This document shows, one piece after another, positions 48-26,539 of a stretch of DNA of 64,000 nt (the first letter of the stretch is position 1; each line of letters starts with the position of its first letter). The position numbers and the translations under genes are program-made. The notes below the pieces were generated by a model. The model was not told where the DNA came from. It did not search any database and saw only the letters and a list, made by a program, of their open reading frames with translations. The DNA is from Prillingera fragicola. Taxonomy: Eukaryota > Basidiomycota > Tremellomycetes > Trichosporonales > Trichosporonaceae. Location: NCBI GenBank assembly GCA_002335605.1, contig BEDY01000011.1, positions 62,001-126,000 on the forward strand, given 5' to 3'.

Positions 48-136
48 ATCACTGCGTGTGGCTGTTTGGAGCAAACCACAGGGGTTGGTTTTGCAAGTAC
101 TGTGGCTGCAACGCCAAGCCCTTCCCAGCATGGTGA
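48..136 (+). CDS. C4-1: last exon of a small four-cysteine protein, 5' part missing
   Basis: Only the second exon is visible. A branch site (CTGAC) and acceptor CACAG end at base 47, and the exon then reads in phase 1 to a TGA at 134-136. It shows the family signature: an aromatic or His residue then Cys (HCVW), about 14 residues, then FCKYC and a short tail ending PFPAW. The first exon, which should carry the start and the first cysteine, lies at or beyond the window edge. The function is unknown. The cysteine spacing resembles a small zinc-binding fold, which is inference. The same exon plan recurs in the genes at 750, 20786, 21460, 22986, 23541, 24145 and 25410. Confidence 0.55.
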
Positions 137-749
137 CATGCCTGTTGTGTCTTTTGGAGCTCTTGTTGTCACCAATGTGTGGTGGCTGATGCATCGTTAC
201 AATTCACTTCTTGTTGGTGCGTTTCTTCGTCGCACCCTCCTACATACATACTGGTATTATTGGGTGAATTTTCGGGAGTTTTTCGGAGCTTTTCAATCAC
301 ATTAACACGAACATTACTCACGATGCCGAGCCCATCACCCCCACCACTCTGCTCAGGTTGCAGGCTCACTGGCAAAAACTACAACAGTGAGCTCCGCGGT
401 GCGTCGAGGAGTGCACTATTGTCTGACGCCCAGAACCTTGCGTTGCTCTTTTTCAAGTAGTTGGCCTCTTGCCATTTTACGGCTGTCGCTACTGTGGCGC
501 AATGATGACTGGGTGTGATCTGCAAATGTGATGAAAGGTCCCGGGCAAGTCCTGGGGTGCGTTGTTGGCAGAAGTGTTGATGGATGGAAGGCTCGTTGAA
601 GACTGATGGAGAATGAGTTTGGGTGCACGCTCTCATTGATTTCACCTTCTCCTCGAGAAACAGGATTACACGTGTTATGACCATCACTAAGTTCGTTGGA
701 AAGCTCTTATAAGAATCCTCATAATATCACTCGTACCCTCCAAGAACAA
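137..749. other. Intergenic, no gene seen
   Basis: Short overlapping frames occur on both strands, but none has a plausible start, splice sites and sustained coding bias. It probably holds the 3' end of C4-1 and the promoter of C4-2. Confidence 0.5.
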
Positions 750-1214
750 ATGTCGCAGAACCAATCCAACAGAGCCATTCCGTACCAGGGGCCGGGAGGC
801 CCTCGATATCCGTCTCAGCAGGCGTCGCAGAACCCGTCACTGAACTCCGGCCAGAGCTTCCCACAGGACATCCCACAAAACTTCGTCCAGAATCTCCCAC
901 AGCAGATGTTCCTTCCCCCGCCCCCCGCCGACACACTCCTCCGCCCCCTGACCCATTGCCCGGGCGACATACACAGGATGAATATGGGTGGTGAGCCCCT
1001 TCCTTCCCGGAAGTCCAAAGAGCAATCACTGACAAGTGGCACAGGAGTTTGCCTCGCCGCGGCTGTTGGGACCGCGACCCAGTGGGGGATTAAATGCGCT
1101 TACTGTCAAAGGGATATTATGCGGCCGAGTGGAGTCATGCCTCGTGTCACTCCCAAGCTCTTCACTACCAAGAACCCTCCTACCAAGGGCCTGAAGAGAG
1201 AGGCGAAGAAGTAG
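750..1214 (+). CDS. C4-2: Gln/Pro-rich protein with four-cysteine domain and basic tail
   Basis: The predicted product is about 136 residues from two exons, 750-990 and 1045-1214. The frame runs open upstream to 696, but only through a TTG codon, so the ATG at 750 (MSQNQ) was chosen. The first 80 residues are rich in Gln, Asn, Pro and Ser and look disordered. Then come the four cysteines: THCPG, GGVCL, and KCAYC. A 34-residue basic tail rich in Lys and Pro follows, which the other members lack. The intron is 54 nt, phase 1, with CTGAC before CACAG. It also reads through in frame, so an unspliced isoform is possible. The gene joins the C4 family by cysteine pattern and intron position. Its function is unknown. 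Confidence 0.55.
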   Translation: MSQNQSNRAIPYQGPGGPRYPSQQASQNPSLNSGQSFPQDIPQNFVQNLPQQMFLPPPPADTLLRPLTHCPGDIHRMNMGGEPLPSRKSKEQSLTSGTGVCLAAAVGTATQWGIKCAYCQRDIMRPSGVMPRVTPKLFTTKNPPTKGLKREAKK

Positions 1215-1698: not shown

Positions 1699-3515
1699 TT
1701 TCCTTTTTGCTTGTACGGCACAGAAAAGAGGTATGCATGGCCGGTGGGATGGTGGCGAGGACTGAAAGCTTGATGGTGCGAAGCAGTGTGGGGTAACTGG
1801 AGGTGTGGGGTGGAGGTGCGGAGTGGCGCTCCATTTGGCCCACAGTAAACTCAAGCACGCATTCATGGGTCCGAATCCTTGTACAGCTAGTGTTATGAGA
1901 TCTGAGATCTGCTAGTTAGCACTTCTTGAGGTAGCAGGGACAATTGCTTGGACAGTCTGTTGCTCACATCGGACGTGCGCAGCTACATGTGCATGGCGGA
2001 CGTCTCCCAACATTCTCGCGCCACTTGCCACCCAACGTTGCAGGATTCCACAGGATCAAATCAATGACCACCACAATCGTCCTCACGGCAGGCTGAAAAT
2101 CCATCTGCAGTAGAGGCATAGGAGGGTACCTTCCCTCGAGGTGTAGGGATGGCACATCTCTCGCAACCAGTGTCAGCCACTCTTCAACCTGCCAACCTGG
2201 CAGCCCAGCAAGGGCCGGTCAAGGAGATGCAGATACTCACTCCCTCTGTTGAAGCGGTACGGGTCACCCGAACAAATACGCAAGTAGTATCCTGCGGGCA
2301 TGTTGTTGGACATGATTGGACTTGTTAGGAATGATGTCGAAAGATGCACAAGCGAAAGAATTAATAAATTCCACTATATGTGCACACATCCATCGCACCT
2401 CTGTTGTTGCTTCTCCCCATCAACACACACACCAGTGGTATGGCAAACTTCACCCTCCTCTCCCTTCACAAAAGCCACCATGTTCTCCTTCAATCCTCCG
2501 CCCGGGTAAACCTGTGGCAGCAATAAAGGCACTCGAGGGAAGTTTCCCCAATGTGAGGAAAGCACCGTCCTGGCGCCCGTTAGTCAACGCCACACTGCCA
2601 ACGATGACAATACGCACGACCCCGGTTGTGGCCTGTCTTGTCGCCGAGGCAGACGCGCGTGAAGAACTCTGCCATGTTGTTGTGTAATCGTGGTTGTGAA
2701 ACGTGAATGAAGAAGAGGTGAGGAGCAGGTAAGAAGTGGGACAATGTTGTGCAGTATATGTATCAGGTGTGCGGCGCCTCCCCTTGCCGCACCATGTGGC
2801 TGTCCTCGCCCTTCCCAGACTGCGCAAGGTCCCCAAAGTGACCGACCTAGAATGCGTGGTAACAAAACGCACACATCAGAGAGTTGATTACAATCTCGGG
2901 AAAGCATAGTTCTAGAGTGCAGGCGTCAGTCCTGGACTCACTAGAGGGTCGAGACTCACGATCCTTGTTTCTGCCCAGCTCGTCGCCGGGGCAGAGTCGC
3001 TTATAGAAGTGAGTGGTCATTACGGTGGGCGCCGTTGTTGTACTCGTTGTGGGTGTGGGTGCTAGTGGCGAAAATGGTTGAATAGAGAGAATAAGTAGCG
3101 TTGAGGATGTTCTTCTCGCCCCACCGAAGGCAAGGCGGTGGGGAAGAAGACGTGTTGCTCGCTCCACCTGGCAGCCACACGTCCTCCCCCACAACATGTT
3201 CCCACTCTTAGTGTGACCACGATGTGTACACCAATCACATCATGTGCGATGTGACTATGTAGAGGTAAGAAGACACCTGAGGCGGCCACTCCAGCACACA
3301 CGACTGCCGCTGAGCACTTCGCGGCATGACCATAACTACACATCGTTCATTCATAATCTCATGACCTCAAAACCGTTCCAACGTCTCAAGCACGTCTACA
3401 TCATAACACACCCCTTTGGCGCCTCCTTTCTCAACCGTGCAGCCTCAGCCGCCTCAGCCTCTTTCCTCTTTCTCTCCTCCTCGGCCTCAAACTCTCTATT
3501 CTGGACCTACAACCG
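1699..3515. other. 1.8-kb stretch without a supported gene
   Basis: Open frames exist on both strands (for example around 2450-2900 minus), but they are low-complexity, lack a consistent exon plan and match nothing I recognise. A GTGAGT-like donor on the minus strand near 2237 could belong to a decayed or unrecognised gene. Confidence 0.4.
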
Positions 3516-8924: not shown

Positions 8925-9011
8925 GGGCGTGTAGCTCAGTTGGTAGAGCGCGTCATTAGCATTTCATCAGTCTATTTGACGAGGTCTTTGGTTCGATTCC
9001 TAACTCGTCCA
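8925..9011 (+). tRNA. tRNA-Ala (AGC) with intron
   Basis: The acceptor GGGCGTG pairs with CTCGTCC apart from one T-T mismatch. The D arm is GCTC/GAGC. The anticodon stem CGTCA/TGACG closes a loop TTAGCA split after position 37 by about 14 nt. The anticodon AGC specifies Ala. The T arm TTTGG TTCGATT CCTAA has one mismatch. The discriminator is A, with no encoded CCA. The two mismatches are noted, but the fold is otherwise normal. Confidence 0.85.
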
Positions 9012-10399
9012 CATCTTTTTGCATTCTCCAGCACCAGGTAGTGCGCCATCCTTTTTGTCTCACAGCCTCAGCGGCCTTGTCTTTCCAGTGCTTGTATGCT
9101 CGGTTCACGAACAGATTGAGCAGTTCGTACCCGCAAGCCTATCCTTCGCCTTCCCATGATTGTCCACTTCCTGTTGGCCCGCGATAACGCGCTCACCTTC
9201 ACTGTGACTATCTGAACCCAATCGCGACCGCAGCACCGCCCAGGGTCTGGACGTGGCCCCCGCACTAGCTGTTTGGCTGAGCGTCGTTTGATCGCGTCTT
9301 GCTCCCTTACTCGGAATCTGAATGCGCGCGCGCTGGGACGCTTTGGCCGGGTGGGTGCGTGCGTCGTGTTCCCTTCCACATCGACCATGTCCTACCTCTC
9401 AGAGACATGACAATGCCACCTGCACTCCAGCATTTGGGCTCGAGATAGGTGGGTCTGGCTACGCCACATCAGCTGGTTGTGCATGTCTCGGCTCCCACCT
9501 CTTGGCCGTCCTCATGACCAGCCGGACTGAGTATCCCTGACCTTGAGCGCTGAGGGCAGTGGCACTTGGCGGAACGACGAGGTCCAAGCTGAACGCCATG
9601 CCGCAGCGCTCTGTGAGGCACGTCAGCGTGTCTCGGAGCGTTGGTGAACGTTCATGAGCTGGCGACATTGATGTTTCATGGTGATCAGCTTGACGCGCGT
9701 ACTGATCATAGGTAGGGAGACGCAAGGTGGCACTTTGACTAGCTGTTTGCTTCGTCAGCTGTTTACATCCTTGGTTAGCGAGATGCGTATGCACTTGCTT
9801 TGAAAGCTTGCTGAACTTTCATTGTCTTTCCTGACTCGTGTTATCTCCAGAATGCGCGATCAAGGATGCGAGGAGTGGTGCGAGGCTACGAAGACAAGGC
9901 TCATCACATTCGAGCGTCGTCATGCCCGGAGTGAAGGAGACGATGTAGATCACTATTGAACCTGCTCTACGAGCGTTCTTAGAGTGCAGTAGACTGAGAG
10001 TGGAAGTTCTTGCTACTGCGTAACGCTGTTAGATGCAAAGGTTGCATGAGTTGTCGTTACTCGTTGGTGGCTCGACGTGTGTGTCTGTGCCACTCATTTT
10101 TCCATTCCACAAACGACACACCAAGTGGAATGGTTGCACGGATCACCCATCATCCCCTTTTGCTCATTCTCACCATCATTCTCACCTATTCGTTCTGTTC
10201 AAACTCTCTCAGTCCTATCCCAACACCCCGGCTCAACGAACACTCTTACAAAGAGCTAGCCACAAGCCTAGTCCATGAGCAACAAGCAAGCACACACAAC
10301 CTCCTTCGCGCTCACACCAAACACCCACATCCTATTCGCGCCCATTGTTGCCACTTCTATCACTACCGCCGGCACACGACGTCCCCTGCACCTCGTACA
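9012..10399. other. 1.4-kb intergenic / 5' leader of the homeodomain gene
   Basis: No supported gene is present. The last 390 nt stay open in frame with the homeodomain gene but are rich in His, Ser and Thr with poor coding character. I treat them as leader sequence. Confidence 0.45.
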
Positions 10400-13300
10400 A
10401 TGACCACCATACCACCGCCGTCCGGACCAAGCCACCTGGCGCCGACGTCGCACGCTCAGGTGCCACCTCAGCCTGTGATCCTCGCCACCGCATCGCAAGC
10501 GACTACCCCAGACTCACCATTGACTCCACCTAGCGATTCACCAAGCGACTCTGCTTCTACTCCGCCCAACTCGCTCAAAGTGATACCTTACGTGTGGCCT
10601 ACCAAGGGGGAGCAGCTGGATCACAACGCGCAACGGCAACATCCTCCGCGGAAAACCCAGGCCAAACATGTCAGCATCGACATGGTGTCAGCACCTCACC
10701 ATGGCTCTGCCCCCCCTATTCCAAATTTCTACGCTGAAGGCGATTACGACCACACACAAGCCTGGACGGTGTCACCAATGCAGACCCCTCGCCAGCAGCC
10801 AACGCTTCCCTTGCCGATCCCTCACCCACAGGAATGGCAAGGTTTAGCGCCTGTAGGAGTGTACACCTTTCAGAATGTCCCAGAGCAGGCCTACGTTCAG
10901 GCCCAGCCAACACCCACCCAGATCTCCTACCCGCCACCACAGACCAGTCCCCCCGGCTCCGCACCAGCCAACCTCCACCCCGTCAACCCCACCCAGCCTC
11001 CCGTGAGACCCCCGCGCCGCGCAACGCTCCCGACCATAGTCGGCCCCACGACCGCAGGAGGCACGACATGGCTCAAGCCGCCAAAGGACTCGGCGACATC
11101 TTCTAGCTCCACAGCAGTGCGGCGAGCTAAAGGACCCTCTCGCGGAATGATTCCGCGTCCACAGCGCCGTACACCGCTGCAGCATGCCCCGCAAGAGCCT
11201 GTGCCGTACCAGGCCTATCAGTGGGATGAGTATGCGAGTGAGCCGATGGTGCATACCGTGGGTGACGGCGTGCACCAGTACAATGCGTATCGGGAGCATT
11301 CGTACCCTGGCGGCGCGAGTGGAGGCGAGATTATGATCGTCGATGCGCACACAGCGTATACGCCTCCTGTGCCGTACTTGCAGCACAAATATCTGCAGCA
11401 AGGGTACCAGCAGCCGCCACCAAATGGAGGATACTCATCCTGCCCCATGACTGCCCAGCAGGCGCCTTGGCAGCTGGAGACACCTCCCCAGCCCGGCGCC
11501 CCCAAGCCGCCACAGACCAACTCTACCGCACCGTCAGGCAGCGGACGTCGGCAGGTCGTCCTCCCTCCGCATGTCCAGCAAGCTCAGCGCGAGGCCAGGG
11601 CGGCGCATGCAAATGCTCAAGCCAACGCAGGAGCAAACATCCCTCCCGTTCCCGCTGGACCTCCTCCAGCCCACGAAGGCAATGCCGTCGTGATGCACAC
11701 GCCAGATGGGCCGTACCAGTGGCTGCCGGGGTCGTGGACCAAAGTCTCTAGCTCACCCTCGCCGGCGGCGTCCAATATCGCTTCACGCCCAGACACTGGC
11801 TACACGGGATCGCAGGCGTTTTTGTCGCCCTTTGGCGGGCAGCCGATGGTCCGTGAGGGGTTCTCGTCGCCGGCCGGTATTGTGGTCGGGAGCTCGCCGC
11901 TGCCACTGGCGCAAGTTTTGGGCAGCAGTCCGACCTTTACCACCTTAGCTAGTACGCGACCTCCAACTTCGGGGTCTGTGACGAGCCAGCCTCCGTCAAC
12001 CTCCAATGGCAGGTTCAAGCCGACTGAAGCTCAGCTCGAGATTCTCCGGCAAGCGTCGTCGCGTGGACCGTAAGTGCTGCACGAAAGAGCCGCGCTGATC
12101 AGCAGCTACCCCGACGCCGAGACTCGCGCTCAGATTATGCACCACATGCCCGAGGTGTCGGCCCAATCGATCGCCGGGTGGTTCAACGCCCGCCGGATGG
12201 CGCAGTCTCGGAGTTTCAACAAGCAGGGGAGGGGAAGGAAACGCAAGGCGCAACCTACCTCTGATGTCGACGAGGAGGATGAGGAGATGGCTCAAGCGCT
12301 GGACTCCCAGAGCACTTCGGTTTCTGCCACTAGTCCGGAGGAGCCTTCTCGCTCGGCAGAGGTATCTGGGTCTCAAGAGTTGATCACGACACCTGAGACC
12401 GCATCCCAGCCGGCCCCGAATGGTTCACCCATCGTCCAGGCTCCCACCCCGGTGAAGGGGCAGCCTCAACTTGTGGTCAGAAGCCACGCTCCAACTCCGT
12501 CGCTATCCACCAGCGACGTCGAGATGCTGGCTCTCTGCTCCATCGTCTTCGACACGGACGGTAAGCCGTCACCCTCGCTTAGCACTCACACCCCAGCCTC
12601 CCTCAGTGTCTTCCCCATTCACCGCTTCGGCATCGCGGGTTGGTCGCGACTAAACAATCCACCAGGCTGCAGCCCGTGTATCGCGGCTGCCATCCGGCCC
12701 AACCCTGCCGAACTGATCTTGTACACCATGTTCAACGCGCAGACCTACCGCGTCACCATGCCACTCCTACCCGCCGCCGTGTCCCGTGTCCACATCCAGA
12801 TGTCTGGAAGCCAAGCGCAAATGTCACTCGACGCCGTGCAGTTGATGTGTACCCTGCACCCTGGTGTGGCATCCTTCCACTGCTGGGGCAACGGCGGGTG
12901 GATGCCGAGGCAGGATTTCACAGGCGGCAGAGTGACTGGTGGCGGCACTGTCGAGCTCGTTGGACCGAGGGAGGTGAGTAGAGTGAGTGGATTAATGCTG
13001 ACACTGCAGGCGCTGTTTGACGCTTGCAGTCGGCTGCAGACCATGCTCGCTGCCGGGCAGTGTCTTGGGCTCGGTACGAGCAGCCCCGACGCGGTGGGGT
13101 ACGCGTCGCAAGAGTTTGTCGCTCCGTCCCAAGACTACTCTCAGTTGCGGTACTCTCAGGCCGCGCAAGAGTACCACGCACAGCAAGAGGCGTCCCAGAG
13201 CTCAACCCCAGCCCACACCACCGCCATGCACCTGCAGGCGCCCACATATGCTCTGCTCGCACCATCGTATCATGGGCGCTGGCCATCCCCTGCCATCCCA

Positions 13301-13639
13301 ATGGTATCCACCGCGGGGCATGCGGGGTACCCTGCTGGTCCAGGCCCGCAGCCACCGACCGAAACGCAGGGCAGTTTCACTTTCCACCACCCCACCAATG
13401 CCGCCAACGACGACGCGTCTGCGTCCATGCTCAGCATGATGCCTAGCGGTGAAGCCATGTTTGAGTCTGTCGCGGACGACCAGCTCAACGTCCTGCACCT
13501 CGGCACGGCGTTGACTGTCGAGACGTACCCGTGGCCGTTCCCGAGTTTTGCTGGTGGTGCCGCCGCCGACGTCACCGGCTCTGCATTGCCCTGTGAGGGT
13601 GCGGGCTGGGTCGGTTTCGGCGTCGAGGGTGGTGACTGA
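10400..13639 (+). CDS. Large homeodomain protein with an unusual recognition helix
   Basis: The 1043-residue product comes from four exons (10400-12069, 12106-12560, 12597-12973, 13010-13639) separated by three introns of exactly 36 nt each. The first intron lies inside the homeodomain, and splicing gives RGPYPDAETR. The homeodomain is near residues 536-592: it begins RFKPTEAQLEILRQ and helix 3 reads IAGWFNARRM. Other homeodomains have WFxNxR; here one residue between WF and N is missing. One extra residue earlier in the domain keeps Asn51 and Arg53 in register. The N-terminal 530 residues are Pro/Gln/Ser/Tyr-rich and disordered-looking. After the domain comes GRGRKRKAQ, a likely nuclear signal, then an acidic patch. 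It is most likely a DNA-binding transcription factor. It does not obviously match mating-type HD1/HD2 proteins, and no partner homeodomain gene lies beside it. ATG 10400 (MTTIPPPSG) was preferred over the open leader upstream. Confidence 0.85.
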
Positions 13640-14107: not shown

Positions 14108-17100
14108 ATGTCGGCAGACACCTCGGACTCCGCGCTGCACCGCGCCGTCGCTGCCGTTCACAATGCCCACGAACCGACAAAGTGGTGCGTGCCTGAACAC
14201 TGAACTCTGTCTGGCCTTTTGGGCTGCCAGCACGCGCCGGCGAAGCTGCAAGGCATGCCAGACGTCGTACGCTGCCTCGCGCGCAGTGGGCGACGAGCAA
14301 CCAGCGTCCACCGCTGGGCGATGCATGGCGAGCGCGGCTGCACGGCCTGGTCACTTGCCAGCCCTTGGCCTCTGCCCGGCGCCCGAGATACGTAAAAAAC
14401 GTCGTTGTACTGACACAAACCACAGGCTCGTAGCTACGTACGCGGCGCCGGCGTCTGCAGCGCTCGTGCTGCGAGCGACGGGCAATGAGCCAGCGCTCGC
14501 TGGCTTGCGAGGCGCTCTCGAGGCCCAGGAGGATACAGCGTTTGGGTACGCTGAGGTCCTTGGCCGAGGTCTCGTCGTGCTCAGCTTGGCCAATGGTGTC
14601 GGGTGAGTTCTGCTTCTGCTTGCCGTCGCCGCTGCCGTTCCTGCCCGGGGCTGGGAACTGCAGCTGGCTGGTGGCGACGAGCGCGTGCGTCTTGCATTGC
14701 TGACGAAACAGGGGCGTGAAGCGAGGTAGGCATCGACGCAAGGCAGGGGGTGGTCGCGAGGGTGACGGCGATGCCAGCGCGGCGATCGTTGCTCACTCGC
14801 GATCGCAAAGCATACGCGCCCACACTGTGCTCTTGCCTGCTTGTGCAAACGTGAGCAAGATAGCTGACATTTACAGCAAAAGCCATCGTGCACTCGCGAG
14901 CCTTTGCTGCTCTCTTTCCGGTTAGTACCTTGCCTCCACCATCCAGCTGTCGAGCGCTTTCCCCGTTCTCCGTTGGAACCCAAACTAACAGTGCAGGACT
15001 ATCTCGCGCTCGTGACTATCACGCGCCACGGAGAGCTCACCGACGAGCTGGTCGCAGAGCGGCTAGGCCTGCCCAGTCTTCCCCCCGCACCGCCGAGCTC
15101 TACTCCAAAGGCCGCGCCAGTGAAGACAACACCGTCGCCTTCAGCTTCCCCAGCCGAGTCATCGCGCAGCTCTCTCCCTTCCAACACCTATCCCTCCAAC
15201 CCCTCATCGTCGTCAAACTATGCGCCATCATCACATATGCGATCGGCATCCCTTGCCCCCTCCCTCGCGCCGTCGGTCACGTCGTCACAAACACAGCGCG
15301 CCCCCTCCCGCACTCACACACGCGAGCCCTCAAGCGCGTCCGCCATCTCCACCTCGGCCGTGTCAACATCGGCTGTGGGCGGAGGGCAATCGTCGTTGCA
15401 TGCGCGCAGGCCAAGTGACGGTTCGGCGCCAACATCCAGGTCCGCGTCCGGGGGCTATGGCAGCAGCATCCCGAGCCCGAAAGATCGCGACCGCGCGCTT
15501 CCAGACCTGCCCACGTCACCAGAAGCAGCCGACATCAATGTGCTCGAGGCCGCGCTTCCCGTTCCCGGGTATGAGCTGCCACCACGCCCAATGCTGGACA
15601 CGGCCAATCAGGCTCTCCGTCGTGCCACGGACAGCAGCGCGCCCGAGTCACCCGCAAGCTCGAACACGACATTCCATACTCCAACGTACACGCCTAGCCA
15701 CTCGACAAACTCGTCCGTCTCGGCAAACTCGCAGTCATCCGCATCAGTGGCTCAAACACCTCGGCAGCCTGCTTCCTCCCCGCTGCCAGAAGTTGCTCCA
15801 CCGATCCCTCCTTTGCAACTGGCGGGCGGGTTGCCGCCAATCCCAGAGCGCGCCGCTGCACGAGGAAGCCCACCTCTTGATCTGCATACAGGCCACGGCG
15901 ACACGCCCAAGCCCTCCTCGCTGGGTGCCGGAGGGGCAGCGGCTGCTAGTGCCGCTGCCGGTGCAGGTGCCGCATCTCTTTCCATTGCCGTGAACAAGGA
16001 CCGCACAGTGTCTAGCTCGGCTACTTCACCTCGCGACTCGGAGGCGTCGTACCACACGGCTTCGGGAAGGGACGGTGCTCTGATCTCACCAGGCATGCAG
16101 AGCAAGGACTCGCAGTCGTTCTACACGGCGTCGCGTGACTCGCATATCTCTGGCCGCGATTCTCGTATCTCTGGCATCTCTGGCGTCTCTGGCATCTCTG
16201 GTCGCGATTCTGGTCGCGACTCGACACCGAGCATGGCTTCGACCGACTGGCGCAACTCGCGCGACTCGTACGGCGCACCCTTGTCATCTATCCGCAACGA
16301 GTCGCGGCGCTCATCACATGCGTCCTCGCGCCACGGCTCTGAGGCAGCTGGATCGACATCGGGAAACTACCGTTCGCCATTAATGGCGTCGCCGGGTCCA
16401 CCGAGGAGGATTTCGCGTGACAGTATCATTCGCCCACCCGGCGTCGGCAAGTTGTCCAATCGCTCGAGCCGGGAGGCCCTGCGTACGTCGCAGACCCCGC
16501 GGCGCATGAGCCGCACCAGCTCGACCGACAGCCAGCCTGGTCATATTATGCCTCCAAACCTCCTGGCGCCCGTGGCCGCGGTGCCTTCGGTGCCGGCTCG
16601 CAGTGGTGCACGGAACAGGCTATCGAGCAACAACATGCGCTACCCCCCGCCACCTACGTCCCCAGCGCCTGACGTGCCTCTCCCCCCACTTCCTCCCAAC
16701 GCACGCGAGCGCACGTTTAGCGCAGGTGCCGCTGCGCTACGTGAGCGCGAGCGTCGAGGAAGTCTTGGCCGCAGCCTGGATCCCAACATCTCGCTCGAGG
16801 ACACGATGCCCCGCAGCCGGAGTGCGTACCCAAAGCTCGACTATGGCCTTGAGCACGACCTTCCTCCTCTTCCACCAATGCCAGACGGATACCTAGTAGA
16901 CGAGTCGCCTGACCCCGGACAGCACCGGTCGCCCAAGTCTCGTGAAATGTTCCCCGACCCACCACCGGTGCCAAAGATGGTTCCTCCGCCAAGGAGCTCC
17001 AGTCGCGATCCTGCCCCACCACGTGTCAAGTCGCCCGAGACGATGACTGTGCCCGATGTTGTCGATATCAATGCCACACCGCGTGCCGCGGAGGTTGCGG

Positions 17101-20100
17101 TCATGCCTGAGACTGTCATGCCGTCGCCGCAGTCCGAGGAAGTCGCCACAGTACCAGCTTCCCTGCCAGTCTCGACACCTCATGCTGCCATGACACCGCC
17201 GTCAAGAATTCCACGCAAGGCTCCTCCACCAGTCACCATTCCTCCTGTCGCTGCACGAGCCGTGTCGTCTCGTGAAACCAGCCCGACAGTGACCACGAGG
17301 GCTACCACCCCAGGCGCGACTACGCCGACTGGTAACAGTCCCGGGCTGATTTCCCACTCGCGCGTCCCGAGTCTCAACTCGCCGACGCGTAAGAAGCCAG
17401 TGCCGCCTGTTGACCCGGATCTGCTTGATCACCCCGAGTTGCTCCAGATCGCACCACCCCCTGGAAGCAGCCTTGCCAAGAATTCGGAGAGTGCTGCCGA
17501 TATCGAGGCTGAAGCCGCCGAGGAGGAGGCACGGGAAACGGCCCGGCAGGACAAGGAGCGTGCAAGGGAAGCGATGGAGAGTATTGGCAAGGGACATCCG
17601 TCAGCGGCGCCCATTGCTGCTGGTGTTGCTGCCGGGTCGGCCGCTGGTGCGACCATTGGTCTCGGCATCAGCGGATCTGCGCTTGAACCACCCCTCACGC
17701 CAACAGGTCACGGGCCCAGCGGGGTCTCTGCCGTCACTCCCTTGTTCAGCTCTGGTGACGAATCGATATCTGCTGTCACGCCTGCTTTCAGCACTGATGG
17801 CACCCTGGCCGCCACGGCCATGCCCTCACCTCGTCCCAGCACGCACTCGGCGAACACTGTAAAGGTCTCCACACCGCGGTCCTTCGACGCCGCCCTGGAC
17901 GCACCTGCTCTCCCTATTTCCTCTGCGCGCTCCATCCACGACCCACCATCGCCTCACACCCCGCTGCCAGACCAGGAGCACCTGGGCGACGACGCAAGTT
18001 CCCTCATGTACTCGCCGCGATCGCCCGAGGTGGACGGCGGGGAGATGCTCGATGACGTGCAGACTGTCAAGGCCAGCGTGGTGCGTGTACACAGCCGCTC
18101 GGCGAGCGCCCAGTTTGTGGAGATAAGCAATGGCCACGTTCGTGCCGCGAGCGTCGACCTCGACCGTGCCGTCGAGAAGGCCACCGAGGTCAACAAGCCT
18201 GCGCCCGTGCCGCCGAAGTCGGCTGCGAGGTCCATTGCTGGCGCTGGTGGCTCCAATAAGGGCTCGCCTGAAGTCGGCACGTCGCCCATGATGCAGGTGG
18301 TCAACATTCCTGCCGGCTCCCCGCTCATTGGCACGGACCTTGAGCGTACGTCGTCGCGGGACGCGGAGCAGGCTCAGCGCCACGAACAGCGCTTGTCCGC
18401 CAAGCCGATTTACGTCGACCTCAACGAGGACGGCGCATCCGACATGGCGCATGGCGGCGGTAGCTCAGTGGGCCACGGCACTACCAGCAGCAACCGCACA
18501 TCCATCGGCTTTGGTCTTGGATCGACCCTCGAGCGTGGTCTGTCGCAGAGCTCTGACCGTATGAAGCGGCGTTTGCCATTCCGGAGGTCGAATGGCTCGG
18601 CGTCCACGGAGTCGTCGCCGTCGCTTACTCTCAACATGCATCAGGCGGGCTACGGATCGCCTGGAACCAGCGAATTCCCCAACACGCCTCCGTCGCCGAC
18701 CACGGCCCGCTTGAGGACTGCCAGTATAACTCGCGTGTTCCGTCGCAAGAACTCGCTTCCGCCTATCTCTGGTAATCCCTCTAGTCCTGAGGCCAGCTCT
18801 TCGCCCGAGCTTGCGGGCCTGGGTATTGGTCTCGGACCCAGCGCCTACCGAACGGCAACTGGTGGTATAGGCTATTCGCCGCCTACTGGTCGCCGCGGCA
18901 GCGACGTCCAGGCCAGCATCACGGCTGAGGCGGCGCTGCTTCACGCACGTAACAAAGGCTTAGCCGAGCAAAACGCTGCCCACGAGCGCTGGCGGCAAAA
19001 CGAGGCCGCTCGTCGTGCACGCAAGACATCAGAGGCTTCAAGTGGTGGCTTGAGTCTGAGCGAGAGCACGCGTCGTTTCCACGGCCGTCGCTCTGGCCCC
19101 AACTCGATCGGCGACCACGGCATGCTTGCCCCCGACTCGCGCTTGTCCATGGCCATGTCTGGGGACACTCACACCAGCCGAAACAGCATTCTCAGTGGCG
19201 AGAGCGACCTGGGACTCGCTTACGACGACCCCGAGGTGTCTGAGCTCACCATTGCGACGCGCCAGCACGCACGCGCACCGAGTGTCGACGGCAACATTGT
19301 CTCGCCTGTCGACCAGCTCAACGCCGCCGCAAGTGCCGCTCGCCGCAATCGTCGTGCGGGTACCCGTGACGGCTCCGAGTTTGAGGATGGAGTCGAGCGC
19401 ATGTCACCGCAGACTCACGACAGCCCATACCTGAGCTCTGGCAATGGCTCCGCTTTGGCGTCGCCACATACCGACAGGAGTGTTCGCAGTACGCTTGGCA
19501 ACAGTCCACTGGGCGAGAACGTTGTCGTCCTCGACAAGTCGCCTTTGGTTATGAGCAGCGAGTTTCCTGCTCACGGGTCGACATCGGATCACTCTCTACC
19601 GCGCAGTGTAGTAAAGTCGGTCCGGAGCGGTGCGGCCACGCCCTCCGAGGAGGCCGAGCGGAGTGCCTCCCGTGCTGCTGCTGAGCGCAAGGCCGAGGCT
19701 GAACGTGCCGTCGCTGAACGTAAGGCGGAGGCCGAGCACCAGGCGCTGCTTGCTTCCGACTCTGAGGCTGCGGCTGCCGCCCGTGCGGAGGTTGAGCAGC
19801 GCCGTGCTGCCCAGCTGCTCGCCGTCGAGCGTGCCGAGGCTGAACGTCGTGAAGTGGAGCGCCTCGAGGCGGAGAAGGTTGCTGCTGAGAAGCGCGCTGC
19901 CGCCGAGGTCGCTGCTGCCAAGCGCGCCGAGGAGGACCGTGTCCGGAAAGAGCAGGAGGAGCAGCGCAAGGAGCGCGAAAAGGAGCGCGCCGAGGTGGAG
20001 AAGGAGAAGCGCGAGGCCATGCGCGAGCAGCTCGTCAAGGGCAAGAGCGACGGCGGGGTCATGCTCCGAGGCTGGGTCACGGTCCAAACCACCCAATCCC

Positions 20101-20354
20101 TCACCTGGCGCCGCCGCTACTTTCACCTTGTTGGCGCGGAGCTGTTGATGTTCAAGAACGACAGCGACAGCAAGCCCATCACGACCGTCCAGCTCGGCAA
20201 GGGCGCAAAGGTCGACCAGGCCTACGAGGAGAGCCAGGTGCGCGGCAGCTGGAGCTTGCGCGCGGCTGGCGGCGAGGAGTATTACATGTTTGCCGACTCC
20301 GCAGAGGATAAGGACTTGATCCTTGAGGGCCTGGCTATTGCTATCGCGGCGTAG
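14108..20354 (+). CDS. ADF-H (coactosin-like) plus PH domain protein, 1889 residues
   Basis: The gene has five exons: 14108-14184, 14426-14602, 14712-14725 (14 nt), 14877-14920 and 14997-20354. All phases agree and the total is a multiple of three. The first four exons rebuild a coactosin-type ADF-H domain (residues about 5-115): SALHRAVAAVHNAHEPTKW, LVLRATGNEPALAGL, TAFGYAEVLG and the terminal helix DELVAERLG. A long disordered Ser/Pro-rich middle follows, with Ser-Arg-Asp and polyproline runs (PPLPPMP), then a charged coiled coil at about 1655-1785. A PH domain closes the protein at about 1790-1886, with LRGWVTVQTTQSLTWRRRYF and a GSWSLR strand. ADF-H domains bind actin and PH domains bind phosphoinositides or proteins, so the product probably links cortical actin to the membrane. 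The PH resembles those of Boi-type polarity proteins; I saw no SH3 or SAM domain. Confidence 0.88.
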
Positions 20355-20785: not shown

Positions 20786-21017
20786 ATGCCACGCGACCCA
20801 ATCCAGCGCCAGCCAGTCTTTGTCTATCCCAGGCGCGTCCATTCGCAGAGCGAGTGCCGGACGCGCCTCGTCAAATGTGGGTGGGTGGAACAGGAATGTG
20901 GTTCTCGGTTGACACGTTGCAGCGTATTGTGTTCCAGGGTTCAAAATCTTGAATGGCTATGAGATGTGGCACTGCGTTTACTGCTACTCGCAGCTGCACG
21001 ACGTGTATAGCTACTAG
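20786..21017 (+). CDS. C4-3: 61-residue four-cysteine protein
   Basis: Exons 20786-20876 and 20923-21017 are joined by a 46-nt phase-1 intron (GTGGGT donor, TTGACAC branch-like site, TTGCAG). The protein begins MPRDPIQRQ. Its cysteines fall in SECRTR, SYCVPG and WHCVYC, and it ends DVYSY. The CVP after the second cysteine recurs in C4-7. The spliced frame avoids stops met in the two unspliced frames. No signal peptide or membrane segment is visible. The function is unknown; a small zinc-binding fold is possible. Confidence 0.6.
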
Positions 21018-21459
21018 AGAGTGTAAGCAGTGTGGGCGGTGGAGAATGGCGCTGACTGTGTGCAGGCGCCATAGGGTCGTCGTTGTCTGCCATGGCGTGT
21101 ATTGTACTGTACTGTTGTTCTTTCACCATACAGCACGGTCAAGTGGCTCTCATGTCAAATGCTCATCTACATACTTGCACACTTCTGCAACCCCGCTCAC
21201 ACAAGCCCTCGGGATGGGCCGGGGCACAGAGGACACGTCGTGTCCTCATTCCTCGTTGGGTGTCTGTCATACTTCCCAGACCGCAGCCACATGATGGCTG
21301 GAAAGAAGCTTCACGCTCAAGGTGACATGCAAGACATTTTCACTTACCCTTCGCAATTTCTACTAACTTCCCATTGCTCAGAAACTAGCGCAACGCTGTT
21401 GGAGTAATCCCCAAGCTCCAAGTCCCAAGGCTCGAGATTCAGGTGTCAGCCGAGGTGTC

Positions 21460-22306
21460 ATGGTCAACCACCCCGACAGCTACACATCTACGCTAGGACC
21501 ACACCCTTCTAAGCCAAAGTCGTTTGCACGGGCTAGAACTCCTCTACCTGCATCTCCAACTTCGGGGAAGCCAGTGCACTCCTCGACAACACGCAAAGCA
21601 CCTGCAGCAAAGCCCAGTCCTGAGCCCAACGCCGACAATCTCTCTGGCTGGCACCCCGACAACTTCTTCATGCACCTGGCGACCAGCGCCTCCGAACCCA
21701 TCGACCGTGAGACAGACGAGGCGTTCGACAACGACAGCAATGAGGAAGAGGATTTCCCCCCTCCCACACGACCCTCCGCGCACCTCGGGCATCGTGCTCG
21801 GCGGCACTCGCACCCCGCAGACGTCGCTTCGACACCACACAATCTCCAAGCCACCAACACATCAGCACCCACACCCGTTTCCCCCGAGACACACACGTCC
21901 ACTGACCCAAAGCTTGCAGTTTTCACCTCTCACTCGTTCCCGCCCCTCTCTCGGCCGCCGACGCCACCCTACACACCCTCCACTATACCGGGCACCCGAA
22001 GAGTGCATGTGCACTGGGACAATGCCGAGGAGGAGGAAACGACCGCCGCGCCGACAAGACGGGTGATCGTCGAGGGACAAATCGCCCGCGACGACGATTT
22101 TGTTTTTGGCTGGGTACTGCACTATGAGGCTTGGGTGCCGGGGATGGGGCCGCGGCCGTGTCCCGAGGACGAGAATGAGCATCGTGAGTCTTGGGTTTTC
22201 TGTGGCGCGGCGCAGGATTGGTCGTGGCGCTGATGGAGCAGGATACTGCCAGGCTGGGTACATTGGTGACATGCGGGTTTGTGCTTATTGTCAATTGACT
22301 TTCTGA
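21460..22306 (+). CDS. C4-4: 262-residue protein, long acidic/Pro-rich arm with C-terminal four-cysteine domain
   Basis: Exons are 21460-22183 and 22242-22306, with a 58-nt phase-1 intron (GTGAGT, CTGAT, GAGCAG). Without splicing the frame ends at 22233 and loses the cysteine domain. The first 180 residues are Ser/Thr/Pro-rich with a strongly acidic patch (DNDSNEEED). A more ordered region follows (DDDFVFGWVLHYEAWVPG). The cysteines are in PRPCPED, HRYCQAG and RVCAYCQLTF, the last running to the stop. It is the longest member and shows the domain at the end of a larger protein. The function is unknown. Confidence 0.65.
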
Positions 22307-22715
22307 AGTACATACTGTTAAAGGTGGAGTAAGACTGTAGCTGGAAAAGCAGATGAAGACCTGTTTCCGAGAGAGAGACTCTTTGTCCGGCCGGGGTTGT
22401 CCGGGGTTCTGGGGTCAGTGGTTCTGCGAGAAGCTCTTGGACCTTCTCATCTGCTCCTTAAATGTCACACAGCTGCTCACCAATCTCATACGTAAATCTA
22501 TTCTCGCCACTCACCTCCAGATAGAACATTGGTGACACTACGATCACACCCAACACCATGGCCAAAGCCCCTCAACCGTGCAGACCCGAGAAGCCGCCCA
22601 TCAAGAAGTGATGCACGTCCCGGTGATGAGGTCTTGAGTAATCTGGAGGGACCTGCCAATATGTCTCTGGCTGTGGAAAGCTCCCAGAGGTGACACTGCC
22701 AGCTGTCTCCGTTCG

Positions 22716-22826
22716 ATGTTCCTGAGAATCCCTATCGTCGTGATTACTGCGATGCAACATTTCTTCACGATTCGGGACGGTTACGATGAACAGCGATATC
22801 CGGTACCTTGGTGGCAACATTGCTGA
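22716..22826 (+). pseudogene. Probable decayed C4 family copy
   Basis: A short frame ends VPWWQHC at a stop. In C4-6 the matching place reads CPWCQHRF, and the DNA is close there (GTCCATGGTGTCAACAT against GTACCTTGGTGGCAACAT, one indel). Both cysteines of the C-x-W-C pair are lost and no proper first exon is found, though a small ATG frame with one cysteine lies near 22558. It sits in the array between two intact copies, as expected for a dead duplicate. Chance similarity is not excluded. Confidence 0.35.
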
Positions 22827-22985
22827 GTCAAGAAGACATGGTGCGAAGGTGCTGTCGTCCACTCAAACTATGTTAATGCGCAGCACTGATGCTGATGTTT
22901 AGCAGCAGACCCAATTGTTTCCCGATGACCTGCTCATCTCCACCAACATCAGTGTACGTACACTATTCATCCTCAGCAGCCCGCA

Positions 22986-23197
22986 ATGCCCCCCTCGTTT
23001 TTTGCCTACCACCTGGACATTGGATATGCCACCTTCTACCGCATTTGTAGAAGCGACGCAGACGGCGTCAACTTTGGCGGTGGGTCAACCCCCGCGTAGC
23101 AGAGACTGACCAGTACCAAGATTGGTGCTATGGGCGGTTCTACAGCTTTGCCATTATTTGTCCATGGTGCCACCACCAGTTTCATCCGCGCGATTGA
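22986..23197 (+). CDS. C4-5: 56-residue four-cysteine protein
   Basis: Exons 22986-23079 and 23121-23197 are joined by a 41-nt phase-1 intron (GTGGGT donor, ACTGACC branch site, acceptor CAAG). The N-terminal part contains DIGYATFYRIC, then GDWCYG, then IICPWCHHQF and a four-residue tail. It is the closest relative of C4-6, which has IGYATSYRHC, GNWCFG and VVCPWCQHRF. Same-strand neighbours about 340 bp apart point to tandem duplication. The function is unknown. Confidence 0.65.
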
Positions 23198-23540
23198 TCT
23201 CAGTGCACGGCCAGTGAAGAAAATATCTGAACATTACCATGATTGCTGTAGAAAACATTTGCACCTATGTGACTATGCGTGCTTTGAGAGTGCACAGTTG
23301 ACGGTGTGTGAAACCCCGCTGTCTCGGGTCGCAGACATGAGGACTGCATGGTGCGAAGGCAGGTGCTGGGAAACTCGCAACTCATCGACTGCGTTAACGG
23401 ACACTGAGATTACCCAGTGGGAGAGCAATCAAAGTACATATGTACATGTACATACATACATGAAGTGGCTTACCATCAGATTTCAACTCTCTACACTGCT
23501 CTCACAACACTCTCAACGGCAACACAGCGTTCTAGTAACC

Positions 23541-23777
23541 ATGCCCCCTCACCCGTATCTGGGCACTTACGAGGATATTGCCTATCGCCCAGGCATAGGC
23601 TACGCGACGTCCTACCGGCATTGCACGGGGAACAGGGACGGCCTGAATGTGGGAAGTGAGTGCCAGTATCGTCTTGTGAGCCCAGACTGAGCCAGCGCAG
23701 ATTGGTGCTTCGGCGAGCTCGATTTTCGGAATGGCGCTGTTGTGTGTCCATGGTGTCAACATAGGTTTGTGAGGTGA
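23541..23777 (+). CDS. C4-6: 63-residue four-cysteine protein
   Basis: Exons are 23541-23655 and 23701-23777, with a 45-nt phase-1 intron (GTGAGT, ACTGAG, GCGCAG). The cysteines lie in SYRHCTG, NWCFGE and VVCPWCQHRF, with the stop after FVR. Unspliced translation ends inside the intron. The match to C4-5 covers both exons and the intron position, which is strong evidence that both gene models are right. No transmembrane segment or secretion signal is seen. Confidence 0.68.
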
Positions 23778-24144
23778 TTCAGGAGCCGTCTGGACATGGG
23801 ATGGCGGGACTGTGCGTGTTGGTACATAATGTGTGTGCATTGCATGCATTGAGAGGTACTGCACGTGCATATGCACCACGTCAGGTCGAGGTGGCTGGGT
23901 GCACGGAGAGCGCCGTTGGAGCGAGGCGAGGACACATTCATAGCGTGACATGAGTTGGCTCTCAAGCTCGCCTCCCTATGACACCCCATTTCTTACAGCA
24001 AGCAACACCAAATGTGCACAGCACAAGCACATACAAAAAGACCAGAGTCGCCCATGCTTCTTCCTTTTCTAATCCGGCCCATTGCTTCTCTCAGACCTTT
24101 TTACCTGAACCGGACTAAAGACACACTGCACGTCACCAGCCGCA

Positions 24145-24331
24145 ATGGGCGTCTACTTCAACCGCATCTGTCAAGGGGACCCCGACAATGGAGAAAACCA
24201 CCTCTGTGAGTGTCTTTCGTGCTGCTCGACAGAACCAGTGCTGACAGCCAGTGCTCTGCGTGCCGTTCACCGAGGTCAACCAGTGGGGTCATGTTTTTAC
24301 CATGTGCTACTATTGCTACAGACCGTGGTAG
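24145..24331 (+). CDS. C4-7: 46-residue four-cysteine protein
   Basis: Exons are 24145-24205 and 24252-24331. The phase-1 intron of 46 nt has a GTGAGT donor and a CTGAC branch site. The acceptor CCAG at 24251 was chosen over an AG four bases upstream because only it keeps the family frame. The cysteines are in NRICQG, LLCVPF and TMCYYC, with the C-terminus YRPW at the stop. Function unknown. Confidence 0.6.
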
Positions 24332-25409
24332 ATCCAGTTCGTGGCTGGATGCATTTGTGATAGATGGCAGAAACTTTTTAGGGTGCATTGGAGATTGTGG
24401 CGCAGGCTGACAGTGCCTCCTTTGAGACATGACACACATCTCGGCTGCCTCTTGGCGTGCATTACAAGCCTCTTTGACTAGATTAAGCCCTCCCAAGCCG
24501 GAAACGTCTGGATGTAGATCTTATTGGGAAGGTTGAGGGAGGCTGAGGGAGGCTGCCCGGTGGCTCGGACCATGTCGGTGGCTTGTTCGGAGTGGCGCAT
24601 TGGCCGTCAACGTGACTGTACAGTGGCAGGCAGCCAAGTTCCCTACGAGTTACGCCGCTAGGTGCCATGAAGCTGATTAGCAGTGTGACATCTTGAGGTG
24701 ACATTGATTTTTTGCATGCAGGTTCGTTGCCAGAGTTACTTCCAGCCTCCACATCACTGGAAGCAACTGTGGCACATTTGCCGACACTCATCTGTGGATG
24801 GCCGCTCTTTGTCATTCCCGGCTGCATTCCTTCTCACTCCTGAAGTCGACAGTTTGCTCGACTAAGATCCAGACTGCTTAATCTCCTCCCCACCAAGTAA
24901 ACAGCTGACATGAGCTTTGGGTTCAGCACCTCAACCAACATTAACCGCACGCAGATCGCAAGCACAGACTCGCGCCACCAGTCCGTGCAAACAACCCACG
25001 CCACGATCCAGACCTTTACCCTCATCCCCCTCGCGCCACCATGGGCAGGCCACGCTCTCATCAAACAATGTTCCCCCATCCCCTCGCATCGTCCTCGCAC
25101 CCACACTGACAACACGAACTCCATTCACCCCATACTTTTTTCTCCCCTTCGTGCGCTTGCCAGCGCCTGCTCGCCAGCCTCACTCGCCCCTCGCCTCGCG
25201 GCAACCGCACCACACTTTCTCCCACAGAGAATGCTGTACCTGTTCTATCCAGCTCCTTATTAACTCATGTCCACCTCGCGCATGGCACATCCGACCACAT
25301 TCACCTGCACACATTTTGACTACGGTACCCAAACCCAGCGCTCTACCACCCCAAAAACCTACTGTCGGCAGTCACCCCTCGCCCAACTGGCTGCAACAGC
25401 GTCCTCGAA
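24332..25409. other. 1.1-kb stretch between C4-7 and C4-8
   Basis: An open plus-strand frame starts at ATG 24910 (MSFGFSTSTN) and runs to 25263. It is Ser/Pro/His-rich with no recognisable domain. It may be a leader or an unrelated small gene, and I do not call it. Confidence 0.35.
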
Positions 25410-25567
25410 ATGAACGACCACACCCGCTACTGCGTCTCCCTCCTCAGCCCATACGGTACGTCCCCCTCCTCTCTCCCAGCAAAGCTGACACGGCGACAGG
25501 CTACTGCCGCCCAGTCCGGCTGGGTCCCCGCTTCATATGCTGCTACTGCAGGACCTACCTTGGGTAA
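25410..25567 (+). CDS. C4-8: 37-residue four-cysteine protein
   Basis: This is the smallest member. Exons are 25410-25455 and 25500-25567, with a 44-nt phase-1 intron (GTACGT, GCTGACA, GACAG). It starts MNDHTRYCVS, continues YGYCRPV and ends FICCYCRTYLG at TAA. It contains the four family cysteines plus one extra. It is close to the minimum length able to hold the motif, so the cysteine core is probably the whole functional unit. Confidence 0.6.
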
Positions 25568-26442: not shown

Positions 26443-26539
26443 TGACGAGAGTGGGATTCGAACCCACGTCCGAAGACTGCGGATATGCTTGGAAGAGCAC
26501 ACCTTAACACAGCGCCTTAGACCGCTCGGCCATCTCGCC
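26443..26539 (-). tRNA. tRNA-Leu (AAG) with intron
   Basis: On the minus strand the acceptor GGCGAGA pairs with TCTCGTC through one G-T wobble. The D arm is the Leu-type GCCGAGCGGTCTAAGGC. The anticodon stem CTGTG/CGCAG closes TTAAGG, interrupted by about 20 nt after position 37. The anticodon is AAG. A short variable arm (GTCTTCGGAC) and T arm GTGGG TTCGAAT CCCAC follow. It is a normal eukaryotic nuclear gene. Confidence 0.9.

What the first reader, a model, noticed from the sequence alone, without database searches (positions are those of the whole stretch)
20786..25567. Tandem array of micro-proteins with a C-x(n)-C-x(n)-C-x-[YW]-C core
Six plus-strand genes (at 20786, 21460, 22986, 23541, 24145 and 25410) share four cysteines, a closing pair of the form C-x-aromatic-C, and a short tail to the stop. 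Core-only members are 37 to 63 residues. I know of no named family with this plan. The length makes them easy to miss in automated annotation, and the cysteine pattern suggests a small zinc-binding or redox module. They have no signal peptide, so secreted-effector roles are not obvious.
Basis: partly seen in the sequence, partly recalled or inferred. Interest (0 to 1): 0.88.

Follow-up and report, generated by a model that had tools for sequence, protein, structure and literature searches.

The report
Tandem family of tiny cysteine proteins
A fungus carries clusters of very small genes, nearly all split by an intron at the same place, that encode mostly 37-63 residue proteins built on four cysteines that probably grip a metal ion; the family matched nothing we could search and is easy for annotation to miss.

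Summary
All six plus-strand genes read as two-exon genes with four cysteines and a closing C-x-[YW]-C. Their introns (41-58 nt) are all phase 1, with the acceptor 5 nt before the codon of cysteine 2. Reading 276 kb of the same genome gave 19 members in three clusters and one weak stray hit elsewhere. Seventeen keep the intron; two are intronless. A rescan allowing any phase found 14 loci, all phase 1 with the same spacing, and 0 in ten shuffles of 256 kb.

Consensus: R-x-C-x-G-D-x-x-G-x-N-x-G-x-x-C-x-P-x(n)-C-x-Y-C. Neighbours m11/m12 differ twice as often at third as at first or second codon positions; other pairs show less. No Pfam, NCBIfam or database relative was found, by searches weak for split, divergent genes.

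Best reading: a lineage-restricted family of stand-alone, probably zinc-binding, four-cysteine microproteins, spread by tandem duplication, whose variable C2-C3 loop is the likely contact surface. Expression, metal binding and function are inferred. Weak resemblances to complex I zf-CHCC and to a RING finger do not support membership of either.

The parts
20786..21017 (+). m09, 61 aa: exons 20786-20876 and 20923-21017, 46-nt phase-1 intron; divergent member; start uncertain
21460..22306 (+). m10, 262 aa: exons 21460-22183 and 22242-22306, 58-nt phase-1 intron; core at the end of a long, probably disordered protein
22986..23197 (+). m11, 56 aa: exons 22986-23079 and 23121-23197, 41-nt phase-1 intron
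23541..23777 (+). m12, 63 aa: exons 23541-23655 and 23701-23777, 45-nt phase-1 intron; closest paralogue of m11
24145..24331 (+). m13, 46 aa: exons 24145-24205 and 24252-24331, 46-nt phase-1 intron
25410..25567 (+). m14, 37 aa: exons 25410-25455 and 25500-25567, 44-nt phase-1 intron; divergent member
48..136 (+). m03, second exon only; first exon lies just upstream of the window at C11:61892-61991; 62 aa in all
323..531 (+). m04, 53 aa: exons 323-386 and 434-531, 47-nt phase-1 intron
750..1214 (+). m05, 136 aa: exons 750-990 and 1045-1214, 54-nt phase-1 intron without in-frame stop
2083..2313 (-). m06, 49 aa: exons 2313-2241 and 2159-2083, 81-nt phase-1 intron
2490..2675 (-). m07, 45 aa: exons 2675-2618 and 2569-2490, 48-nt phase-1 intron
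2847..3020 (-). m08, 41 aa: exons 3020-2960 and 2911-2847, 48-nt phase-1 intron without in-frame stop; a longer start at 3197 is possible

Best explanation
A family of stand-alone, probably intracellular microproteins. Each folds around one metal ion, most likely zinc, held by four cysteines: cysteine 1 in a conserved turn (CxGDxxGxN), cysteine 2 usually twelve or thirteen residues later, and a closing C-x-aromatic-C knuckle. The C1-C2 segment is the scaffold. The C2-C3 segment varies in length (10-15 residues) and sequence and is the probable contact surface for a partner protein or nucleic acid, so paralogues would differ in what they bind. The genes descend from one ancestor that already had the phase-1 intron, multiplied by local tandem duplication and diverged fast while keeping the cysteines and the intron; two lost the intron. 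Shown: gene structures as predicted from sequence, common descent, tandem duplication, coding-level constraint for one pair. Inferred: expression, zinc, location, adaptor role.
For: Four invariant cysteines in 19 of 19 (four cysteines and the closing motif were partly search conditions). One intron, phase 1, same place, in 17 of 17 intron-bearing members (16, m18); 14 of 14 loci phase 1 in a scan that allowed any phase. Nearest relatives are neighbours: m11-m12, m02-m03, m07-m08, m16-m17; m02 and m03 share a 3' flank, 77% over 62 nt. Third-position excess in m11/m12, 15/16/30 differences in 52 codons. C1-C2 spacing 12 or 13 in 16 of 19, C2-C3 spacing 10 to 15. The closing part resembles zinc knuckles of RNF125 and zf-CHCC.
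Against: No transcript, protein or metal data. PDB matches are not significant (E 0.08 or worse). Third-position excess is small or absent in other pairs, for example 16/15/15 for m06/m07 and 10/17/17 for m07/m08. Three members have a shortened C1-C2 spacing, so one fold for all is not certain. Related work found that only nine of 14 purified CxxC microproteins of an archaeon bound zinc (PMC11241148, abstract). Nothing here identifies a partner.
Confidence: 0.5

Rival explanations
1. Genetic-conflict or self-recognition repertoire: the microproteins are fast-renewed recognition or poison/antidote-type factors, kept by conflict within the genome or between strains, and the C2-C3 loop is the recognition part.
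For: Clustered tandem duplicates with strong divergence and clusters intermixed in a poorly supported tree; variable C2-C3 loop; no relatives found.
Against: No direct evidence: no strain variation, partner gene or phenotype was examined; neighbouring genes are ordinary.
Confidence: 0.12
2. Decaying relics: fragments of an older zinc-finger gene scattered by duplication and no longer functional.
For: Short length, strong divergence, loss of the conserved loop in m09, m10 and m14, and weak or no third-position excess in several pairs.
Against: A spliced open frame with start, GT-AG intron and stop could be modelled for all 17 intron-bearing members, though open frames were a search condition for most; cysteines kept while both cysteine codons are used at all four places; third-position excess in m11/m12.
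Confidence: 0.13
3. Offshoots of the mitochondrial complex I zinc subunit (zf-CHCC, NDUFS6) that swapped the histidine ligand for cysteine 2.
For: 8qby_R is second of four PDB matches with the 19-member profile and the only one with six members (E 0.31 and 0.47); hhalign against seven zf-CHCC sequences scores 26.7, probability 76%, and a 15-row version beat 60 of 60 column shuffles.
Against: A RING fragment scores higher in the same test (29.9, probability 94%); zf-CHCC is not among the Pfam families matched by any of 19 members at E up to 10; the zf-CHCC model finds only the genome's own NDUFS6, whose introns lie elsewhere; the GHP histidine is not conserved in the family.
Confidence: 0.07
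4. A redox or iron-sulfur module rather than a zinc site, or a small metal buffer.
For: Four cysteines with one CxxC; no experiment separates the possibilities.
Against: Conserved glycine, asparagine and aromatic positions and only four conserved cysteines do not look like a metal buffer; the closing part resembles zinc knuckles.
Confidence: 0.15

Closest known systems
C(P)XCG zinc-finger microproteins of Haloferax volcanii (PMC11241148, abstract and outline seen)
   Same: Proteins under 70 residues built on cysteine pairs and predicted to bind one or more zinc ions
   Different: [quoted passage not shown] here only one CxxC pair, two single cysteines and an intron; no sequence comparison was made
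zf-CHCC / NDUFS6 (PF10276)
   Same: C-x-G start, similar spacing to a closing C-x-Y-C-x-x-x-[FY]
   Different: The histidine ligand in GHP is absent; an extra cysteine 2 is present; introns elsewhere in the genome's own NDUFS6; no Pfam match
RING finger of RNF125 (PDB 8gbq)
   Same: C-x(10)-W-x-C-P-Y-C stretch aligns with C2 to C4
   Different: RING uses eight ligands and two zincs (recalled); only four conserved cysteines here
Conserved small ORFs of fungi (PMC7394265, abstract and outline seen)
   Same: Proteins of 80 residues or less that gene prediction overlooks
   Different: That survey looked for ORFs conserved across 31 fungal genomes; this family is divergent and split by an intron; its lists were not searched

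Membership tests
zf-CHCC (PF10276) | Match to the Pfam model | tested here: not met
   Not among the five families matched by any of 19 members at E up to 10; the model finds only the genome's own NDUFS6
zf-CHCC (PF10276) | Histidine ligand in a GHP motif between the first and third ligand | tested here: not met
   No conserved histidine in that place in the 19-row alignment
zf-CHCC (PF10276) | Profile similarity above other zinc families | tested here: inconclusive
   Score 26.7 against 29.9 for a RING fragment, 17.1 for rubredoxin, 8.4 for GATA and 8.8 for TFIIS fragments (the last three recalled)
RING finger | Eight metal ligands in a cross-brace (recalled) | tested here: not met
   Only four invariant cysteines
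Rubredoxin | Two CxxC knuckles (recalled) | tested here: not met
   Only the closing pair is CxxC; cysteines 1 and 2 are 8-13 residues apart; no rubredoxin family among Pfam matches
Metallothionein | Many cysteines, mostly in CxC pairs, few aromatic residues (recalled) | tested here: not met
   Four conserved cysteines and an aromatic residue in the closing motif
Small secreted cysteine-rich effector | N-terminal signal peptide | tested here: inconclusive
   No N-terminal hydrophobic run by hydropathy of the first 35 residues; no signal-peptide predictor was run
C4 zinc-binding microprotein (functional class) | Four cysteines including one CxxC in a short domain | tested here: met
   19 of 19; partly a search condition
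C4 zinc-binding microprotein (functional class) | Bound zinc | not testable with these tools
   Needs purified protein

The most novel reading that the evidence does not exclude
A lineage-specific, rapidly renewed repertoire of splice-dependent metal-binding microproteins: the intron separates cysteine 1 from cysteines 2-4 in all 17 intron-bearing members and its retention would truncate the protein in 15 of 17, so splicing assembles the metal site and could switch the repertoire, whose variable loops recognise changing partners in genetic conflict or self-recognition.
Probability: 0.1. Interest if true: 0.85.

Novelty: new variant of a known kind. Interest (0 to 1): 0.55.

Why it matters
It shows a gene family of at least 19 members that similarity search and ordinary gene prediction can miss, because most of its proteins are under 65 residues, split by a tiny intron and too divergent for word matching. 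The fixed intron gives a simple DNA signature (phase 1, acceptor 5 nt before a Cys codon, then a closing C-x-Y-C before a stop) by which the family can be counted in other fungi. If the proteins are made and bind metal, the family is a natural set of about 35-residue single-metal folds with one variable loop.

Tried and rejected
Protein database searches with m12, with all 19 and with six of the closer members gave no homologue. In one search, 26 candidates shared words and none reached E 10; the other two had no candidate. These searches need shared exact words and the database may hold few spliced fungal proteins, so the absence is weak evidence. Pfam and NCBIfam gave only isolated weak matches, best E 0.053, each to a single member. 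A viral-contig scan could not run because the alignment has no conserved stretch. The zf-CHCC lead was followed and set aside after the RING control. Upstream sequences showed only a TATA-like enrichment (TATGTAT in 5 of 19 against 0.2 expected) and nothing specific. Eleven member searches of the whole genome hit only the three clusters, but they rarely found intron-split relatives, so further clusters are not excluded; about 276 kb of 20.25 Mb was read. Six literature listings showed no description of such a family in the rows listed.
Full report
WHAT WAS CLAIMED AND CHECKED. Other splice choices exist for each gene; the preferred ones have the best donor and branch signals and introns of 46, 58, 41, 45, 46 and 44 nt. 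All six preferred introns are phase 1, and the split codon lies two codons before cysteine 2.

EXTENSION. A scan for the same plan in the window, both strands, found the six plus three more at 323-531 (+), 2490-2675 (-) and 2847-3020 (-), and nothing in 20 shuffled windows scanned on one strand. The window lies in a 20.25 Mb, 17-contig assembly, on contig C11 at 62001-126000. I read C11:1-256000 (plus the window) and C4:1826001-1846000. On C11 the wider scan gave 12 good hits and two low ones: one is m09, the other, at 147206, a stray. It gave 0 hits in 3 shuffles of 256 kb. On C4 it gave four. One more C11 member (m02) and a fifth C4 member (m18) were found from motif listings and read by eye. 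In total there are 19 members: eight at C11 60.1-65.0 kb, six at C11 82.8-87.6 kb (the finding) and five at C4 1832.4-1836.4 kb. Eleven whole-genome searches with single members hit only these places, but apart from self matches they found mostly the intronless members, so other clusters may exist.

THE INTRON. My first scanner required phase 1, so I repeated the scan with any phase, a consensus donor and a branch-like site. It found 14 loci in 276 kb, all phase 1 with an acceptor 5 nt before a cysteine codon, none in phase 0 or 2, and none in ten shuffles of the 256 kb. The five members it missed are the two intronless ones (m01, m15), m02 (donor GTCAGT), and m09 and m12 (no CTRAY match). In the final models 17 of 19 members have the intron, 34 to 81 nt long. 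For m18 the choice is 31 or 34 nt, and m06, m18 and m19 use less usual acceptors. The intron separates cysteine 1 from cysteines 2-4 in all 17; unspliced reading is truncated in 15 of 17.

THE PROTEINS. The consensus of 19 is R-x-C-x-G-D-x-x-G-x-N-x-G-x-x-C-x-P-x(n)-C-x-Y-C with four invariant cysteines. Glycine lies two after C1 in 15 of 19, asparagine five before C2 in 16 of 19, and the residue two after C3 is aromatic in 19 of 19, which was a search condition. C1-C2 spacing is 12 or 13 in 16 of 19, and 8 or 9 in m09, m10 and m14. C2-C3 spacing ranges from 10 to 15. Most are core-only; m05, m10 and m15 carry long extensions of low complexity. No N-terminal hydrophobic run was seen by hydropathy alone.

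SELECTION AND DUPLICATION. m11 and m12 share 28 of 52 aligned residues; their codons differ 15, 16 and 30 times at positions 1, 2 and 3, as expected if the protein is constrained. Other pairs show less: 20/17/25 for m02/m03, 10/17/17 for m07/m08, 16/15/15 for m06/m07. Both cysteine codons are used at all four positions. The closest pairs in a tree of the cores are neighbours: m11-m12 (support 0.98), m02-m03 (0.85), m07-m08 (0.78), m16-m17 (0.73). Deeper branches are poorly supported and the three clusters intermix. m02 and m03 also share a 3' flank, 77% over 62 nt, the only DNA-level repeat found between copies at E 1e-3.

RELATIVES. No Pfam or NCBIfam model gave more than isolated weak matches, and three searches of a 5.8-billion-protein set found nothing. 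Against the PDB the 19-member profile's matches up to E 10 are an RNF125 RING (E 0.08 and, in a second entry, 3.1), a zf-CHCC chain of complex I, 8qby_R (0.31), and a U1C chain (9.7); with six members only 8qby_R appears (0.47). I tested the zf-CHCC lead: hhalign gives score 27.2, above all 60 column shuffles (maximum 15.9), on 15 of the 19 rows because duplicate row names were lost, and 26.7, probability 76%, on all 19. But the RING fragment scores 29.9 in the same test. The genome's own NDUFS6 alone scores 17.0, rubredoxin 17.1, GATA 8.4, TFIIS 8.8, and six chance peptides with a similar cysteine plan average 12.3, maximum 16.7. The shared part is a generic zinc knuckle. The genome's own NDUFS6 is elsewhere, with other intron places. 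I take the resemblance as weak support for zinc, not for descent.

CONTEXT. Neighbouring genes are ordinary: a large PH-domain protein, an alcohol-dehydrogenase-like gene and an AMP-binding enzyme in the window, and near the C4 cluster a P450-reductase fusion and transporters. Ten of the 20 neighbouring frames tested matched no Pfam family at E 0.01. Nothing suggests a shared pathway.

JUDGEMENT. The family, its gene structure and its spread by duplication are well supported (about 0.95). That the genes are translated and constrained is likely (about 0.8) but rests on one strong codon comparison and on features partly used to find the members. A zinc site is likely (about 0.65). The adaptor role with a variable loop is a proposal (about 0.35). 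The Haloferax study (PMC11241148, abstract seen) warns that such small proteins need not bind zinc and that AlphaFold2 does not settle it. That fungal small ORFs are often overlooked is stated in PMC7394265 (abstract seen). A passage search of PMC12820176 found none of zinc, tandem, expanded, orthogroups or uncharacterized in its text. PMC10568926 was seen as abstract and outline only.

Noticed in passing
window 26443-26539 (-): A tRNA gene, 97 nt, probably with an intron, found by Rfam and not by ARAGORN as run, which reported others at 1610-1698 and 8925-9012.
   Followed up: no
window 15237-20354 (+): A 1705-residue open frame with a C-terminal PH domain lies directly before the array.
   Followed up: no
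window 12074-13636 (+): A long open frame holds the stretch GWFNARRM, which recalls homeodomain helix 3; no Pfam match at 0.01 and no homeodomain in the PDB search.
   Followed up: partly
C11:60082-60219 (-) in L006, and C4:1832439-1832729 (+) in L031: Two family members (m01, m15) have no intron while 17 others keep it, a likely case of intron loss within a tandem family.
   Followed up: partly
L031:2828-5773 (+): A P450-reductase fusion gene (P450, flavodoxin, FAD and NAD domains) lies beside the C4 cluster.
   Followed up: no
L033 (C4:436577 region): The fungus's NDUFS6 appears to have one intron just after its first ligand cysteine and another splitting the last cysteine codon of its CGYC motif.
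   Followed up: no
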